Source: Candidatus Avelusimicrobium caledoniensis
Lineage (GTDB): Bacteria > Elusimicrobiota > Elusimicrobia > Elusimicrobiales > Elusimicrobiaceae
Assembly: GCA_900315795.1 (NCBI GenBank)
Contig: ONAM01000010.1
Coordinates: 1 to 64,000 of the forward strand
Length of the DNA stretch: 64,000 nucleotides
Direction of reading: 5' to 3'
How positions within the stretch are numbered: the stretch's first letter is position 1; every line of letters begins with the position of its first letter. Made by a program: the position numbers and the translations under genes. Of the stretch, positions 7 to 58,681 are shown one piece after another. Under the pieces are notes generated by a model. It was given only the letters and a program-made list of their open reading frames with translations. It was not told the origin of the DNA and made no database searches.

Positions 7-555
7 ATGATGTCCCTATCGGGCCATTGTCAGGCAAAGCCTGACCTACCTAAATTACAACGCTCCGGCTTTACGTTAATAGAATTATTAGTCGTCGTTC
101 TCATCATCGGCATTTTGGCGGCGGTGGCTCTGCCACAGTATAAAGTGGCGGTAACAAAAGCGCGGATAGGCACCATGCTCCCGTTACTCAAAGCGATTTC
201 TCAAGCAGAAGAAGCATATTATATGACAAACGGAGCATATACATACATCAGTACAGATAATAACCCTACTGACATAGAATTTACCGGATGTACCCAATCA
301 CATCCGGGTAATTTGAGTTGGAATTGCGGCAATAATTTTTTACTTGATTTCAATACCAATAACTACGTGGCTGCGGTATATTGCCCGGGCTATAACACGG
401 CCTCGGCTATATGTAACTCTCACAAAGATTTTCAAATTCTCAAGTATTATCAGCACCCGCGTTCGGACTATGCCAAGCCCCTAGCCGGAAAATGGAAATG
501 TGAAAGCACCACTACCTTAGGGCAAAAGATTTGCGGATCACTAAAATTTGATTAG
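7..555 (+). CDS. Type IV pilin-like prepilin (pilin 1)
   Basis: Exported subunit of a type IV pilus or related pseudopilus. After a leader of about 21 residues comes the class III signal G|FTLIELL with Glu at mature position 5, a long hydrophobic helix ending near ALPQY, then a globular domain with several cysteines (about residues 94-170) that could form disulfides. The leader contains a REP-like palindrome at 26-49 translated as [14 protein letters not shown] directly abuts the first ATG and the window begins 6 nt upstream, so the true start may lie outside the window. The 3' end overlaps convergent folC by 15 bp. It is one of six paralogues here. Whether it is a major or minor pilin cannot be told. 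Confidence 0.9.
26..49. repeat. REP-like palindrome in pilin 1 leader
   Basis: The stem is TCAGGC / GCCTGA with a 3-nt loop, flanked by ATTG on the left and CCTAC on the right. The same unit occurs in the leaders of pilins 3 and 4 and, as a variant, pilin 5. It is read in frame without stops. Confidence 0.75.
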
Positions 556-1749
556 TTCTTTTCTCACTTCGCCCACGAGATAAAAAGAGCCCGTTACGAG
601 CACTACGTCGGCTTGTTCTTGTGCGCGGGCAAGCGCGGCAGAAACGTCCGGCACGAACGTCCACCCGGACGGCAAAATTTCGCCCGTCTTTTGTGATGAA
701 AATTTTTCTATATCCCGCATTCCGACTCTGCGGGATGACGAGAAAAATTTTACCGCGCGCGGCGAAGAAACAACCGTTACTATTCCCGTCTTAAAACGCG
801 CGGATAACATAGAAATCATTTTCGGATAATCTTTATCTTGCATAAACGCGCATAACACCGTCGCGCGTTTGTTGGCAAACGGCGTTGTCTGCCAAAACGC
901 GAGTAAATTTTCCATAGCGGGCGGATTGTGCGCCCCGTCTAAAATAATTGTTTTTTTCCCACGCGTAAAAATTTCAAACCGCCCGGGCACACTTACTTTT
1001 TCCAAACCGCGCTGTAAAATTTCATCTGCAATTCCCAACAATTTCGCCGCGCGGTGCGCCAACTGTTTATTTTGTTCTTGCGCGTTTCCGGGGAAATTTT
1101 CCGCACAGACTATTTCTAACGGAGCTTCTTTTGTGCGGGCTGTTTCTTGCACCACGCGCAAGGCCTCAGACGGCAAAAAACCGCACAACACCGGCACGCC
1201 GGGCTTAATAATGCCGGCTTTCTCAAAAGCAATTTTTTCTAAACTGTCGCCGAGCAAGTGCGTATGGTCCAAGCCGACAGAAGTAATGATAGATAAAACA
1301 GGTGCACACACATTGGTTGGATCTTTACGCCCGCCAAGGCCCGTTTCCAACACTACATACTGCGCGTTTTTTTCGGCAAAATAAACAAAAGCGGCCGCCG
1401 TTAACACTTCAAAAAAATTAAGCGGCTCTTGTTCGTGCGCAAGCACTTTTTCCACCGCGTTTATAAAATCATCCGGCGTGATTTCCATCCCATTAAACTG
1501 GATACGCTCCGTCGGAGAAATTAAATGCGGCGAAATAAACAGCCCCGTTTTATGCCCCGCCAGCGAAAGCGCATGCGCCAACAACGTACACACCGTTCCT
1601 TTGCCGTTCGTGCCCGCCACGTGGATAATTTTGTAATTTTGGTGCGGATTACTTAACCGCGCCAACAGTTCCTTAAACGCAACTAAACCCGCGCCGCGGT
1701 TTTGTGCGGTGCGGGTTTGTAAATCAGTAAACCACGTATTAAAATTCAT
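541..1749 (-). CDS. folC: Folylpolyglutamate synthase / dihydrofolate synthase
   Basis: Adds glutamate to dihydropteroate or folates in the cytoplasm. The ATP-binding P-loop is seen as [10 protein letters not shown] near residue 45, followed by the Mur-ligase-type central domain ([24 protein letters not shown]) and the C-terminal ligase domain starting near DGAHNPPAM. Length 402 aa is close to the family norm. Residues about 333-350 are encoded by a 53-bp palindromic element (699-751) that looks like an in-frame insertion into the C-terminal domain. The start overlaps the end of murA by 11 bp, so the two are probably co-transcribed. The 3' end overlaps pilin 1 by 15 bp. Confidence 0.93.
699..751. 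repeat. Palindromic element inserted in folC
   Basis: Outer arms AAAATTTTTCT (699-709) and AGAAAAATTTT (741-751) are perfect complements. Inside is ATA, a 7-bp stem TCCCGCA / TGCGGGA with a 9-nt loop, then TGACG. The architecture matches the copies at 5636-5683 and 59202-59262, although the outer arms differ completely in sequence. Confidence 0.8.
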
Positions 1750-5450: not shown

Positions 5451-5562
5451 AACACAAAGTCCCTTTTGCAAAAGATAACATCCTAAGCCCCAAGAGGTTT
5501 TAGGCCGTATGCCTGCCCCCGGCTAGGGCCTTGACAAATCAAAAAAAAAAACGATAATAAAG
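5451..5562. repeat. Pilin upstream module A, copy 1
   Basis: About 110 bp ending in the pilin 2 promoter. It aligns closely with 54681-54791 upstream of pilin 5, sharing TTTGCAAAAGATAACATC and TATGCCTGCCCCCGGC directly before TTGACA. The GC-rich segment can form a small hairpin next to the -35 box. Confidence 0.75.
5531..5558 (+). promoter_or_regulatory. Pilin 2 promoter with A11 spacer
   Basis: -35 TTGACA (5531-5536), a 16-nt spacer containing 11 consecutive A, and -10 GATAAT (5553-5558). The same design lies before pilins 3-6. The homopolymer in the spacer is a candidate slippage site. Confidence 0.8.
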
Positions 5563-5593: not shown

Positions 5594-6178
5594 ATGAAAA
5601 ACATAAAAGCATTTACACTTATTGAATTGCTATACCCCGCGCCTATATCCCGTATAGAAACCCTACGGGATGACGAGGCGCGGCGCGGCGGCTTTACGTT
5701 AATAGAATTATTAGTCGTTGTCCTTATTATCGGCATATTGGCGGCGGTGGCGTTGCCGCAATACCAAAAAGCGGTGGATAAAGCACGGTTTATGCGGATA
5801 TTACCCGCCTTGGATAGCATTTTGAAAGCCGAAGATTCTTATTATTTAGCAAACGGAACTTTTACCAATTCTTTAGAAGAGCTGGACATTGAATTGCCGG
5901 GTACAATGACGGCAGACAAAAAGGCAATTGGCATGAACGGAGTAGGGATTTATTTAGCCCCACAGTATCAAGGTGTTTACGCCCGAGATAATAAGATACC
6001 GAATATTACAATTTATGCATTTTCCCGCTACCGCAACAATGAGTTTGGCGGAAAAATAACGTGCTATGCAAGAGTAGCTGACGCACGAGCCGTGTCTTTA
6101 TGCAAAAATTTATCCGGGAAAACAATCCCGGATGACGTGGTCTCTTACGGAAACGAAAATGTATATTTTCTAAACTAG
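5594..6178 (+). CDS. Type IV pilin-like prepilin with duplicated cleavage motif (pilin 2)
   Basis: 194-aa prepilin with AGGAG 8 nt before the ATG. It begins [13 protein letters not shown], then has about 20 residues encoded by a palindromic element, then [18 protein letters not shown]. The FTLIELL processing motif is therefore present twice. The second copy is followed by the intact hydrophobic helix and is the likely functional one, giving a 33-residue leader. The two copies differ at most third codon positions, so they come from two pilin genes joined by recombination rather than a fresh duplication (inference). The globular domain is short with few cysteines. It ends one base before the convergent regulator gene. 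Confidence 0.9.
   Translation: MKNIKAFTLIELLYPAPISRIETLRDDEARRGGFTLIELLVVVLIIGILAAVALPQYQKAVDKARFMRILPALDSILKAEDSYYLANGTFTNSLEELDIELPGTMTADKKAIGMNGVGIYLAPQYQGVYARDNKIPNITIYAFSRYRNNEFGGKITCYARVADARAVSLCKNLSGKTIPDDVVSYGNENVYFLN
5636..5683. repeat. Palindromic element in pilin 2 leader
   Basis: Outer arms CCGCGCCT (5637-5644) and AGGCGCGG (5676-5683); inside ATA, stem TCCCGTA / TACGGGA with a 9-nt loop, then TGACG. Same architecture as the folC and 59202-59262 copies, with different arms. It is read through in frame between the two FTLIELL motifs. Confidence 0.8.
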
Positions 6179-27941: not shown

Positions 27942-28526
27942 TTACATCGGGTAAAAACGAATAGATCCTTTCGTTTCCGCTAACGGACCGGAACCCATTA
28001 CTTTTTGACAAAAACTACCGGGATCGCCCGAATAAGAGCCAACCCACTCCCGGCATTTCCACTCTCCCGTTGAATACGATACCATTAACCCGCAATATTT
28101 ATATTTCCCGGTTATAAAGTGGGCAATAACGTTTCCACCGCTTAAGAGAAGTTCAAATTGATCGTTATAGCGCACCCAATCGGTAGGGGTAATACCGGCC
28201 GGCCAATACGTCCCGCCCAACGGAGGCGTATTTCCCGCTGTTAAGTTATCCACATCCACGGCCAATTCACCAAATGAAGTAGGACTTTCGCCGTTGGCCA
28301 AAATATACGCATTGGCCGCTTGAGCCACACTGCTCATCAATGTCCGCATATTGGCCGCGCGACTTTTCCACACCGCTTTTTGGTATTGCGGCACCGCCAC
28401 CGCCGCTAAAATGCCGATGATTAACACAACGACTAATAACTCAATAAGCGTGAAACCTTTATGTAGGTCAGGTTTCACCTGACAATGTTTCGGCAGAAAC
28501 ATCTTTCCTTGTTTGACGTCAGGCAT
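27942..28526 (-). CDS. Type IV pilin-like prepilin (pilin 3)
   Basis: Prepilin with [16 protein letters not shown], Glu5 and a C-terminal domain with three or four cysteines. The start is uncertain. The strong ribosome site AAAAGGAGG (28548-28556) is followed by ATG ATG TAG (28543-28535), which stops at once, because a REP-like pair fills the leader. In-frame starts are TTG at 28547 (too close to the ribosome site), ATG at 28526 (chosen; inside the repeat) and ATG at 28502. The leader is 24 residues from the chosen start, partly encoded by the repeats (KHCQVKPDL). Convergent with deoB. Confidence 0.82.
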   Translation of the reverse strand: MPDVKQGKMFLPKHCQVKPDLHKGFTLIELLVVVLIIGILAAVAVPQYQKAVWKSRAANMRTLMSSVAQAANAYILANGESPTSFGELAVDVDNLTAGNTPPLGGTYWPAGITPTDWVRYNDQFELLLSGGNVIAHFITGKYKYCGLMVSYSTGEWKCREWVGSYSGDPGSFCQKVMGSGPLAETKGSIRFYPM

Positions 28527-28539
28527 AGCCTGACCTACA
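28463..28539. repeat. Inverted REP-like pair in pilin 3 leader
   Basis: Two palindromic units in opposite orientation (28463-28484 and 28518-28539), each with GTAGGTCAGG-type outer ends, forming a 77-bp REPIN-like doublet that covers the start-codon region and leader. Confidence 0.75.
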
Positions 28540-28568
28540 TCATACAACCTCCTTTTACCATTAAATAA

Positions 28569-28596
28569 AATGTAGCAAAAAAAAAAACGATGTCAA
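28569..28596 (-). promoter_or_regulatory. Pilin 3 promoter with T11 spacer
   Basis: On the minus strand: TTGACA (28596-28591), 16-nt spacer with 11 consecutive T, TACATT (28574-28569). Directly upstream is the GCCCCCGGCAAGGGGG hairpin also found before pilin 5. Confidence 0.8.
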
Positions 28597-37525: not shown

Positions 37526-38185
37526 TTACTGATACTTCCACGTATATGCACCTACGGAACCTGTCCCGGGCGTTGAAGCTCCCGATTCGGTTTTGCACAC
37601 TTTATTTTGAACGGAAGACAAATCCCGATTTCTCGCCACACAGATACGTTTGCCGGGATTAGCAATTGAATGAGTAAAGTAAATCATATACTGCATACCC
37701 AATTTAGTATCCCAACATTGTGCCGTATATTCACTGCTGCTACTTCGTGCCCGCAACGAACAAACCACCCCCGAAGAATAAATACATTTGGGCTCCGTAT
37801 CGCTCAACGTACAGCCGGCCGGCTCAACCGATAAAGTTTCAAAATCTTCCGTATAAGTTCCGTTCGCCAAATAATAAGCTTCTTCGGCGTCCGCTAGACT
37901 TTTAGTTAAATTCTTAAGTGTAGCATATCGCGTTTTGGCTACCGCCATTTGATACTGCGGCACCGCCACCGCCGCCAATATACCAATAATCAACACTACC
38001 ACTAATAGTTCAATGAGCGTAAAACCGCCACGTTGTTTTCTACGTAGGTCAGGCTTTGCCTGACGGGGTTTAACCGATTTTGTAGTCAGCGAAACCTGAT
38101 GCCGAATAAAGCTACATGCCTCTTGCGAGGCATTGTCAGGCATAGCCTGACCTACAACAGCTTTAAAACATCTTTCCTTTTCCAT
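37526..38185 (-). CDS. Type IV pilin-like prepilin with long leader (pilin 4)
   Basis: 219 aa. ATG at 38185 follows AAAAGGAGGAG. The first 54 residues form an unusually long leader containing two repeat-derived segments (VGQAMPD and RQAKPDL), then [16 protein letters not shown], Glu5, and a globular domain with several cysteines (CTLSDTEPKC, VVCSLRA, QCW, ICVA, VCK). EEAYYLANGTYTEDF is shared with the other paralogues. Transcribed from an A/T-tract promoter behind a 120-bp palindrome. Convergent with lpxI and divergent from tpiA. Confidence 0.9.
   Translation of the reverse strand: MEKERCFKAVVGQAMPDNASQEACSFIRHQVSLTTKSVKPRQAKPDLRRKQRGGFTLIELLVVVLIIGILAAVAVPQYQMAVAKTRYATLKNLTKSLADAEEAYYLANGTYTEDFETLSVEPAGCTLSDTEPKCIYSSGVVCSLRARSSSSEYTAQCWDTKLGMQYMIYFTHSIANPGKRICVARNRDLSSVQNKVCKTESGASTPGTGSVGAYTWKYQ
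38044..38155. repeat. Inverted REP-like pair in pilin 4 leader
   Basis: Units at 38044-38064 and 38132-38155 face each other, with outer ends GTAGGTCAGGC and GCCTGACCTAC. A further GCCTC / GAGGC hairpin lies between them. The whole 112 bp is open in the pilin frame. Confidence 0.78.
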
Positions 38186-38212: not shown

Positions 38213-38240
38213 AATGTAGCAAAAAAAAAAACGATGTCAA
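38213..38240 (-). promoter_or_regulatory. Pilin 4 promoter with T11 spacer
   Basis: Minus strand: TTGACA (38240-38235), 16-nt spacer with 11 T, TACATT (38218-38213). Identical in layout to the pilin 3 promoter. Confidence 0.8.
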
Positions 38241-38406
38241 GCCCCTCTCCGCTTTTCTGACACCAGAAAAGCTCGCAAAAGAGTGCCGCCCCGGGGTGCT
38301 ATAAAAAGCAGACAAATCGGGAAAATTTACAAACTCGCTACCCGCTCAAACATGTAAATTTTCTTTTCCGATTTGGCGCTTTTTATAAACAGCACTAAAG
38401 GGGCGG
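38235..38406. repeat. Pilin upstream module B, copy 1 (large palindrome)
   Basis: 172 bp that is the near-identical reverse complement of 58292-58461. It contains a 121-bp palindrome (38286-38406) with terminal CCGCCCC / GGGGCGG and inner stems through TATAAAAAGC, CAAATCG and AAAATTTACA, then a small CTTTTCTG / CAGAAAAG hairpin next to the -35 box. MITE-like; no coding capacity. Confidence 0.85.
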
Positions 38407-54680: not shown

Positions 54681-54791
54681 AACACGAAGCCCCCTTTGCA
54701 AAAGATAACATCATACGCAATCAGAGGTTTGAGGCCTTATGCCTGCCCCCGGCAAGGGGGTTGACAAATCAAAAAAAAAAACGATAATAAG
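54681..54791. repeat. Pilin upstream module A, copy 2
   Basis: Close copy of 5451-5562, ending in the pilin 5 promoter. The CCCCCGGCAAGGGGG hairpin is directly next to TTGACA, exactly as upstream of pilin 3. Confidence 0.75.
54761..54788 (+). promoter_or_regulatory. Pilin 5 promoter with A11 spacer
   Basis: TTGACA (54761-54766), 16-nt spacer with 11 A, GATAAT (54783-54788). Confidence 0.8.
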
Positions 54792-54834: not shown

Positions 54835-55527
54835 ATGGAAAACAGTAAATATAAAAATATGTCATTCCCGCAGGTCTTTGGCGGGAATCTTCCTCTTTCG
54901 GAGTTGTTATTAAAAAAAGAAAAACAACCTTGTTTTATGCAGAAAGTGGAAGATCCCCAACAGAAACTCTTGGGGATGACACCTAATTTTACGTCGGGTT
55001 TACACCCGACCTACAACTACCGGGCCATTGTCGGGCTTACACCCGACCTATATGCAAAGCAACGCGGCTTTACACTCATTGAACTATTAGTCGTTGTCCT
55101 CATTATCGGCATACTTGCCGCCGTAGCATTACCCAAATACCAAGTGGCTGTAATGAAAACACATTACGCCACGTTAAAAAACATGGCTAAAAAAATGGCA
55201 GAAGCACAAGAAACGTATCATCTGGCAAACGGCACCTACGCTGCTGATTTTGACGAATTATCCATAGATATAGGGGGCTCGTATTATGGGGCAGGCACCC
55301 ACGATGCCCAGAAATTTCCTTGGGGGCATTGTAATATTGCCCCCTCCTATTGTCAATGTTCCTATCAGGATAAAATGTTTTTTCGTATTTTTTATTCAGA
55401 CGGAAGTCAGCGTTGCGGCGCCCGTCCTAATTTAGTCATAGAAACTCAAGTGTGCAAACAGGAAACGGGCTTAAATGCGCCGTCGTACCCCGCCTCTCCG
55501 ACGGAAGCATGGTACGATTATCAATAA
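54835..55527 (+). CDS. Type IV pilin-like prepilin with 78-residue leader (pilin 5)
   Basis: 230 aa. ATG at 54835 follows AAAAAGGAG. The processing site [16 protein letters not shown] comes only after 78 residues. That leader is built largely from four palindromic units of two families (54859-54893, 54948-54983, 54993-55014 and 55027-55050), all open in frame. The mature protein has Glu5, MKTHYATLKNMAKKMAEAQETYHLANGTY-type helix and several cysteines (CNIAPSYCQC, RCGA, VCK). The frame also opens at 54739, but that lies in the promoter. It lies between the RDD gene and pal, in the same direction. Confidence 0.9.
   Translation: MENSKYKNMSFPQVFGGNLPLSELLLKKEKQPCFMQKVEDPQQKLLGMTPNFTSGLHPTYNYRAIVGLTPDLYAKQRGFTLIELLVVVLIIGILAAVALPKYQVAVMKTHYATLKNMAKKMAEAQETYHLANGTYAADFDELSIDIGGSYYGAGTHDAQKFPWGHCNIAPSYCQCSYQDKMFFRIFYSDGSQRCGARPNLVIETQVCKQETGLNAPSYPASPTEAWYDYQ
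54859..54983. repeat. Inverted GTCAT/ATGAC palindrome pair in pilin 5 leader
   Basis: Unit 1 (54859-54893) has stem ATTCCCGC / GCGGGAAT and unit 2 (54948-54983) stem ATCCCC / GGGGAT. Both have flanks GGAAG and GACA, in opposite orientation, giving a 125-bp REPIN-like doublet ending in TGTCAT and ATGACA. Confidence 0.75.
54993..55050. repeat. Tandem REP-like units in pilin 5 leader
   Basis: Two direct copies of the GTCGGG-CCCGACCTA palindrome (54993-55014 and 55027-55050), a variant of the TCAGGC / GCCTGA unit in pilins 1, 3 and 4. Translated in part as VGLTPDL. Confidence 0.75.
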
Positions 55528-58461: not shown

Positions 58462-58483
58462 AATCAAAAAAAAAAACGATAAT
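58456..58483 (+). promoter_or_regulatory. Pilin 6 promoter with A11 spacer
   Basis: TTGACA (58456-58461), 16-nt spacer with 11 A, GATAAT (58478-58483). The ATG is about 200 nt downstream. Confidence 0.8.
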
Positions 58484-58514
58484 AAAGGGACGCAAAAAAT
58501 ATATCAAATAATAC

Positions 58515-58651
58515 GTCATGTTGAATCGCGGCCCTTACTGCTTGGCCGCGCCCCGAAAAGTTTTTGTTCGGGGTCTGGTCAATGGGTTTCAGCATCTCAC
58601 CTTGTTGCCGTTTTAGAAAGCGGTGAGATCCCGGATCAAGTCCGGGATGAC
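58515..58651. repeat. GTCAT/ATGAC-ended element in pilin 6 5' UTR
   Basis: 137 bp between promoter and ribosome site, ending in GATCCCGG-TCAA-CCGGGATGAC and beginning GTCATGTTGAA. Inner hairpins GGCCGCG.. and CCCCGAA / TTCGGGG, and CTCACC facing GGTGAG. It would lie in the pilin 6 mRNA leader, leaving the coding leader clean. Confidence 0.7.
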
Positions 58652-58681
58652 AGCATTATTGATATTGAAGGAGCAAACAAT

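What the first reader, a model, noticed from the sequence alone, without database searches (positions are those of the whole stretch)
38044..38155. REP-like palindrome pairs inserted in frame in prepilin leader peptides
The unit ATTG-TCAGGC-nnn-GCCTGA-CCTAC occurs in the leaders of pilins 1 (26-49), 3 (two, inverted), 4 (two, inverted) and 5 (two, tandem variants). In each case it is read without stop codons and is confined to the part cut off by prepilin peptidase. Leaders become 21-78 residues instead of about 6. The processed pilin is unchanged, so the leader is a near-neutral landing site. This resembles Rickettsia palindromic elements in proteins and REPIN doublets of Pseudomonas, but targeted to a disposable peptide.
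Basis: partly seen in the sequence, partly recalled or inferred. Interest (0 to 1): 0.85.

Follow-up and report, generated by a model that had tools for sequence, protein, structure and literature searches.

The report
Mobile palindromes inside pilin leader peptides
In a gut bacterium with more than 200 pilin genes, small mobile DNA palindromes (REPINs) have repeatedly entered, in frame, the short leader peptide that is cut off each pilin, so translated leaders have become a main home of a normally non-coding repeat.

Summary
The unit is a GTAG-tagged REP, usually in inverted pairs (REPIN). The genome holds 29 exact copies against 0 for the reversed control. Of 39 family copies, 24 lie in pilin leaders and 10 just upstream of pilins. 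Density is 3.4/kb in leaders, 0.35/kb in the 300 bp upstream and 0.03/kb in other non-coding DNA. No RAYT was found in this genome. A congener with the same unit carries one, recognised by its NCBIfam model and flanked on both sides by the same REPINs.
The phenomenon is wider than reported. The genome has 217 pilin N-termini. About 40% of sampled pilins have 31-78 residue leaders, against 6 or 15 without inserts. These also carry a second class, CGTC/TGTC-tagged palindrome pairs.
Leaders look translated but sequence-neutral: the frame is open from a Shine-Dalgarno start, other frames hold 3-5 stops each, and mismatches show no codon-position bias. Near-identical leaders sit on unrelated promoters and pilin bodies.
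Tolerance alone does not explain why leaders beat intergenic DNA. I favour insertion plus redistribution of leader modules among paralogues; that last step is inferred.

The parts
37526..38023 (-). mature part of pilin 4 ([14 protein letters not shown]...)
   Evidence: Pfam N_methyl and NCBIfam IV_pilin_GFxxxE
38024..38185 (-). 54-residue leader of pilin 4, MEKERCFKAVVGQAMPDNASQEAC...RQAKPDLRRKQRGG
   Evidence: ATG with AAGGAGG 6 nt upstream, open to the cleavage site
38044..38064 (+). GTAG-tagged REP (GTAG-GTCAGGC-TTT-GCCTGAC), cleavage-site-proximal, read as QAKPD
38135..38155 (-). inverted partner REP, start-proximal, read as VGQAMPD; spacing 87 bp (0 mod 3)
28455..28547 (-). leader region of pilin 3; start uncertain because the good-SD ATG runs into TAG of the REP tag
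   Evidence: sequence
28463..28483 (+). GTAG REP, GTCAGGT variant, in pilin 3 leader
28518..28538 (-). inverted partner REP, spacing 51 bp
7..69 (+). pilin 1 leader, 5' end cut off by the contig end
   Evidence: contig C20 starts at window base 1
29..49 (-). GTAG REP in pilin 1 leader
54835..55068 (+). 78-residue leader of pilin 5
54860..54981 (+). TGTC-tagged palindrome doublet (TGTCATTCCCGC...GCGGGAATCTTCC ... GGAAGATCCCCAA...TTGGGGATGACA), read as MSFPQVFGGNLPLS...GMTP
54993..55047 (+). two tandem GTAG-type REPs with another stem (GTCGGGnTTACACCCGAC + CTA)
5594..5692 (+). pilin 2 leader [33 protein letters not shown]: a palindromic insert between two copies of FTLIELL
5633..5688 (+). palindromic insert in pilin 2 leader
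58493..58664 (+). CGTC-tagged doublet upstream of the SD of pilin 6 (6-residue leader): same class, not translated
707..742 (-). related palindromic element read in frame inside FolC as part of a 17-residue insert absent from 7 relatives

Best explanation
The unit is a GTAG-tagged REP and its inverted pairs are REPINs, short non-autonomous mobile elements of a REP-associated tyrosine transposase (RAYT). The RAYT gene, flanked by the same REPINs, survives in a congener and was not found in this genome (shown). In this genus REPINs and a second class of CGTC/TGTC-tagged palindrome pairs entered the 6- or 15-residue leaders of a very large pilin family. They are kept where the frame stays open from the Shine-Dalgarno start to the cleavage site (well supported). 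Prepilin peptidase should remove the leader, so its amino-acid sequence is free to drift (inferred from pilin biology and from the lack of codon-position bias). The excess in leaders over intergenic DNA most likely arises because leader modules, once interrupted, were passed between paralogous pilins by recombination or gene conversion (inferred). Evidence for that is that near-identical leaders stand on unrelated promoters and bodies.
For: REP structure: GTAG + 7-bp stem + 3-nt loop, inverted doublets; the congener REPIN folds as ssDNA with z -8.8. RAYT: the G025 gene hits NF047646 REP_Tyr_transpos at 126.5 bits (cut-off 80), with REPIN doublets on both sides. Location: 24 of 39 copies in leaders; leader 3.37/kb, upstream 0.35/kb, other non-coding 0.03/kb. 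Translation: SD-preceded ATG upstream of the inserts, leader lengths bimodal at 6 and 31-78; in 43 long leaders the used frame has no stop while the other two average 2.95 and 4.72 and are open once each. All 25 leader units are in the QAxPD frame; leader doublet spacings are 51, 60, 75, 87, 99, 117 and 123, against 76, 98, 101 and 142 elsewhere. Sequence-neutral: mismatches 11.6/13.3/14.0% by codon position in leaders, 13.2/1.5/46.8% in the mature core. Modules: leaders 85-99% identical while upstream and body sit near the random-pair level of about 63-66%. REPIN leaders are scattered on the body tree, 13 changes against 14.3 shuffled. A prepilin peptidase gene is present.
Against: No RAYT in the own genome, so ongoing movement is unproven. 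Start codons were assigned by a Shine-Dalgarno rule, with no protein data. Openness of the frame is partly built into the definition of a leader. Pilin 3 and the locus G000:C24:20217-20330 have broken or ambiguous leaders. Redistribution by recombination is not shown: leader-sharing pairs have no raised identity in the adjacent mature core (81.4 against 80.1%). Leader and non-leader counts include doublets and shared modules, so the copies are not independent events.
Confidence: 0.72

Rival explanations
1. The repeats lie in 5' untranslated DNA and pilins start at internal codons after them.
For: Several related elements do lie upstream of the SD of short-leader pilins (58493-58664). Pilin 3's good-SD ATG is followed by TAG. 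REP loops can contain ATG. A survey of REPs warns that N-terminal REPs are often not translated (PMC3733652).
Against: Long leaders begin with the best SD and ATG; other frames hold 3-5 stops while the leader frame has none. After the last repeat there is usually no ATG with an SD.
Confidence: 0.1
2. The hairpins are functional regulators: RNA structure close to the start codon tunes translation or stability of individual pilin mRNAs.
For: The pilin 4 leader mRNA folds to -73.1 kcal/mol, z -5.6. The elements concentrate at pilin 5' ends, both inside and upstream of leaders.
Against: Spacer length and sequence vary freely and only some pilins carry them. Function is not tested, and any REPIN would fold this way.
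Confidence: 0.15
3. The repeats are recombination joints that help shuffle pilin bodies or leaders, and are kept for that reason.
For: Leaders and bodies are decoupled. Pilin 2 has FTLIELL twice with different codons, as a junction of two pilins would.
Against: Shared leaders stop at the cleavage site without raised identity in the core. Pilins without repeats have diversified as well (random pairs).
Confidence: 0.2
4. One repeat-bearing pilin was duplicated many times, so the enrichment is simple descent.
For: Some leaders are 90-99% identical.
Against: The bodies of those genes are no more alike than random paralogues and are scattered on the tree. At least four unrelated insert families occur in leaders.
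Confidence: 0.05

Closest known systems
REPINs and RAYTs of Pseudomonas (PMC3116915) and BIMEs/REPtrons of E. coli (PMC8266576)
   Same: GTAG-tagged palindromes in inverted pairs of about 70-110 bp; RAYT gene flanked by the same REPs, here in a congener
   Different: Mostly inside translated leader peptides rather than extragenic; no RAYT found in the own genome; low copy number (about 39)
GTAG- and CGTC-tagged REPs inside genes (PMC3733652)
   Same: Both tag classes occur, singly and as dimers, in frame in proteins
   Different: There the hosts are scattered proteins, many in DNA repair, and N-terminal cases were judged often untranslated; here dozens of members of one gene family carry them in one removable segment
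Rickettsia palindromic elements (RPE)
   Same: Palindromic elements read in frame in many proteins; to my knowledge no transposase is known for them
   Different: RPEs remain in the working protein; here the insert should be cut off with the leader. Sequence kinship to RPEs was not tested

Membership tests
REP / REPIN (RAYT-associated) | short palindrome with GTAG at one end | tested here: met
   GTAG-GTCAGGC-NNN-GCCTGAC, 30 exact sites with the full tag listed in the own genome
REP / REPIN (RAYT-associated) | inverted doublets separated by a spacer | tested here: met
   doublets in own genome and congener; hairpin fold
REP / REPIN (RAYT-associated) | cognate RAYT gene flanked by the same REPs | tested here: met
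   congener G025:C50; not found in the own genome
REP / REPIN (RAYT-associated) | repetitive well above chance | tested here: met
   29 exact against 0 reversed control
REP / REPIN (RAYT-associated) | mostly extragenic (typical location, not required: intragenic REPs are described in PMC3733652) | tested here: not met
   24 of 39 copies inside pilin leaders; this is what makes it a variant
REP / REPIN (RAYT-associated) | mobility (excision or new insertion) | not testable with these tools
   needs strain pairs or reads
Rickettsia palindromic elements | in-frame palindromic insert in proteins | tested here: met
   leaders and FolC
Rickettsia palindromic elements | sequence homology to an RPE family | not tested
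   no RPE sequence was compared
Type IV pilin (prepilin) | prepilin N-terminal cleavage/methylation motif | tested here: met
   N_methyl and TIGR02532 over cut-off
Type IV pilin (prepilin) | removal of the long leader by prepilin peptidase | not testable with these tools
   peptidase gene present; cleavage not observed

The most novel reading that the evidence does not exclude
Prepilin leaders in this genus are exchangeable modules in a genome-wide pilin diversification system. Repeat-bearing leaders and a replication-oriented A11CGAT site in the promoters serve as joints at which more than 200 dispersed pilin genes swap promoters, leaders and bodies, and REPINs have been co-opted for this.
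Probability: 0.12. Interest if true: 0.88.

Novelty: new variant of a known kind. Interest (0 to 1): 0.63.

Why it matters
REPINs are described as extragenic passengers whose cost to genes limits where they can live. Here a removable peptide gives them a translated but sequence-neutral home in dozens of paralogues. That makes the cost-of-insertion question countable within one genome: frame, density, and decay inside and outside leaders. It also shows how prepilin leaders can lengthen up to about tenfold, and it points to a pilin family of unusual size in gut Elusimicrobiota whose leaders, promoters and bodies evolve independently.

Tried and rejected
Y1 transposases in G001, G002, G031 and G033: sequence reading shows ordinary IS200-type genes, not RAYTs. 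The unit in Planctomycetes, Gastranaerophilales and a rumen MAG: mostly non-coding and with no pilin in the fetched stretch, so the REP family is wide but the leader habit was not seen there. Gene duplication as the whole explanation: rejected on the body tree. Syntenic comparison upstream of tpiA: G014 has a pilin there with a 6-residue leader, but its body (50% identity) is no closer than own paralogues (best 53%), so it is not a proven empty site. Leader charge and hydropathy against other frames: no clear difference from the better alternative frame. Indels in aligned leaders are not multiples of three, but the aligner is unreliable there. Literature searches found no report of palindromes in prepilin leaders or of this pilin count in Elusimicrobia; the library lacks many subscription journals.

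Full report
WHAT IS THERE. The window is bases 1-64000 of contig C20 of a 1.46 Mb genome, 99.1% complete in 40 contigs. A congener with the same contig coordinates (G025) is titled 'uncultured Elusimicrobium sp.' in the public collection, so the window is from Elusimicrobiota. The unit GTCAGGCNNNGCCTGAC occurs 29 times exactly, against 0 for the reversed control; at up to 2 mismatches it is 41 against 2. A variant, GTCAGGT...ACCTGAC, often lies exactly 51 bp from the first.

THE HOST GENES. A degenerate pattern for [14 protein letters not shown] finds 217 places in the genome; congeners have 9-155 and the other family of the order 0-5. In 733 kb read directly, leader lengths are bimodal: mostly 6 residues, a few of 15, and about 44 of 31-78 residues, with an SD-preceded ATG at the upstream end. 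The 15-residue form (for example MEKKSCLLGCLDAKA) is common in congeners G004 and G031 and looks like an empty site: MENKSSLLGCLNQIK-[insert]-FTL is the filled form.

LOCATION OF THE UNITS. Of 39 family copies, 24 lie in leaders and 10 upstream of pilins; four of the other five lie at or within about 110 bp of a contig end. In an unbiased 458 kb sample the unit density is 3.37/kb in leaders, 0.35/kb in the 300 bp upstream of pilins, 0.03/kb in other non-coding DNA and 0 in other coding DNA. A structural scan for GTCAT-tagged palindromes gives 5.5, 0.53, 0.23 and 0.02 per kb, and five control tags give none in leaders. Leaders are lengthened by the inserts themselves, so per original base the excess is larger still.

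IDENTITY. GTAG next to a hairpin, in inverted pairs, is the definition of GTAG REPs and REPINs (PMC3733652, PMC3116915, PMC8266576). In G025, which carries 36 copies of the tagged unit, a 170-residue Y1 transposase matches the NCBIfam REP-associated tyrosine transposase model at 126.5 bits (cut-off 80), and REPIN doublets stand on both sides of it. The own genome has no Y1 transposase and no hit to this RAYT. In G025 15 of 36 copies are in open frame with pilins, so the leader habit is shared. Outside the genus the same tagged unit occurs in Planctomycetes and others, mostly in non-coding DNA.

A SECOND CLASS. Many leaders carry doublets of the form TGTCAT-stem-ATCT ... AGAT-stem-ATGAC(A/G), with varying stems, read as CHSKLDLESH...QVQHD, RHPELDSGSH...PDQVRDD, MSFPKF...GMTP or MSCRKVFIRH...RDD. 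The CGTC end matches the CGTC class of PMC3733652, which includes Rickettsia RPE-4 and RPE-6 by that paper. Membership by sequence was not tested.

TRANSLATION. In 43 long leaders the used frame has no stop, while the other frames average 2.95 and 4.72 and are open once each. All 25 leader units of the own genome, and 12 of 15 in G025, are read as QAxPD; the third frame would read TGA. Doublet spacings inside leaders are 51, 60, 75, 87, 99, 117 and 123, or 122 where the two units use different open frames. REPINs elsewhere have 76, 98, 101 or 142, and the native 76 would put the partner in the stop frame. Between related leaders, mismatches fall evenly on codon positions (11.6, 13.3, 14.0%), unlike the mature core (13.2, 1.5, 46.8%). 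The reading that fits is a peptide that must stay open but whose sequence does not matter. The residue before cleavage is G or A in every case, and one prepilin peptidase gene is present. Cleavage itself is inferred.

WHY LEADERS. Neutral tolerance predicts no more than intergenic density, so it is not enough. Leaders of different genes are up to 94-99% identical, while their upstream 200 bp and mature bodies are near the random-pair level. REPIN leaders are scattered over the body tree. So either the same element entered many leaders, or leaders were exchanged. Identity does not rise in the adjacent core, which fits discrete modules but does not name the process. A FolC insert of 17 residues, absent from seven relatives, shows that coding DNA elsewhere can also take such an element, rarely.

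LIMITS. Gene and start calls are heuristic. About half the genome was read base by base. Contigs break at these repeats. Copies are not independent events. Nothing here shows current mobility or function.

Noticed in passing
window 5541-5555, 28577-28591, 38221-38235, 54771-54785, 58466-58480; genome-wide sample: A11CGAT motif: 92 copies in 733 kb, 88 within 450 bp of a pilin. On nearly every contig all copies point the same way whatever the pilin strand, and the direction follows GC skew. It forms the -35/-10 spacer of two pilin promoter types, found in 89 of 104 pilins. This suggests a replication-oriented site used for pilin spread, recombination or phase variation.
   Followed up: partly
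whole genome G000: 217 places encode [14 protein letters not shown] in 1.46 Mb, about one pilin per 6.7 kb, mostly as dispersed single genes.
   Followed up: partly
window 707-742 (FolC, 541-1749 minus): In-frame 17-residue palindromic insert in folylpolyglutamate synthase, absent from seven relatives.
   Followed up: yes
window 38300-38385 and similar sites upstream of pilins: Long inverted repeat with varying stem (AAAAAGC...AAATTTAC ... GTAAATTT...GCTTTTT) near pilin promoters, repeated with different stems elsewhere.
   Followed up: no
pilins of the own genome: Residue before the cleavage site is A in 57 of 60 short leaders but G in 27 of 43 long leaders.
   Followed up: no
L142 5436-5502 (Sedimentisphaerales MAG): The same REP doublet lies inside an 882-residue open frame.
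   Followed up: no
G000:C24:20217-20330 (L055 217-330): A leader with three REP units whose frame is broken, possibly a decaying copy.
   Followed up: partly
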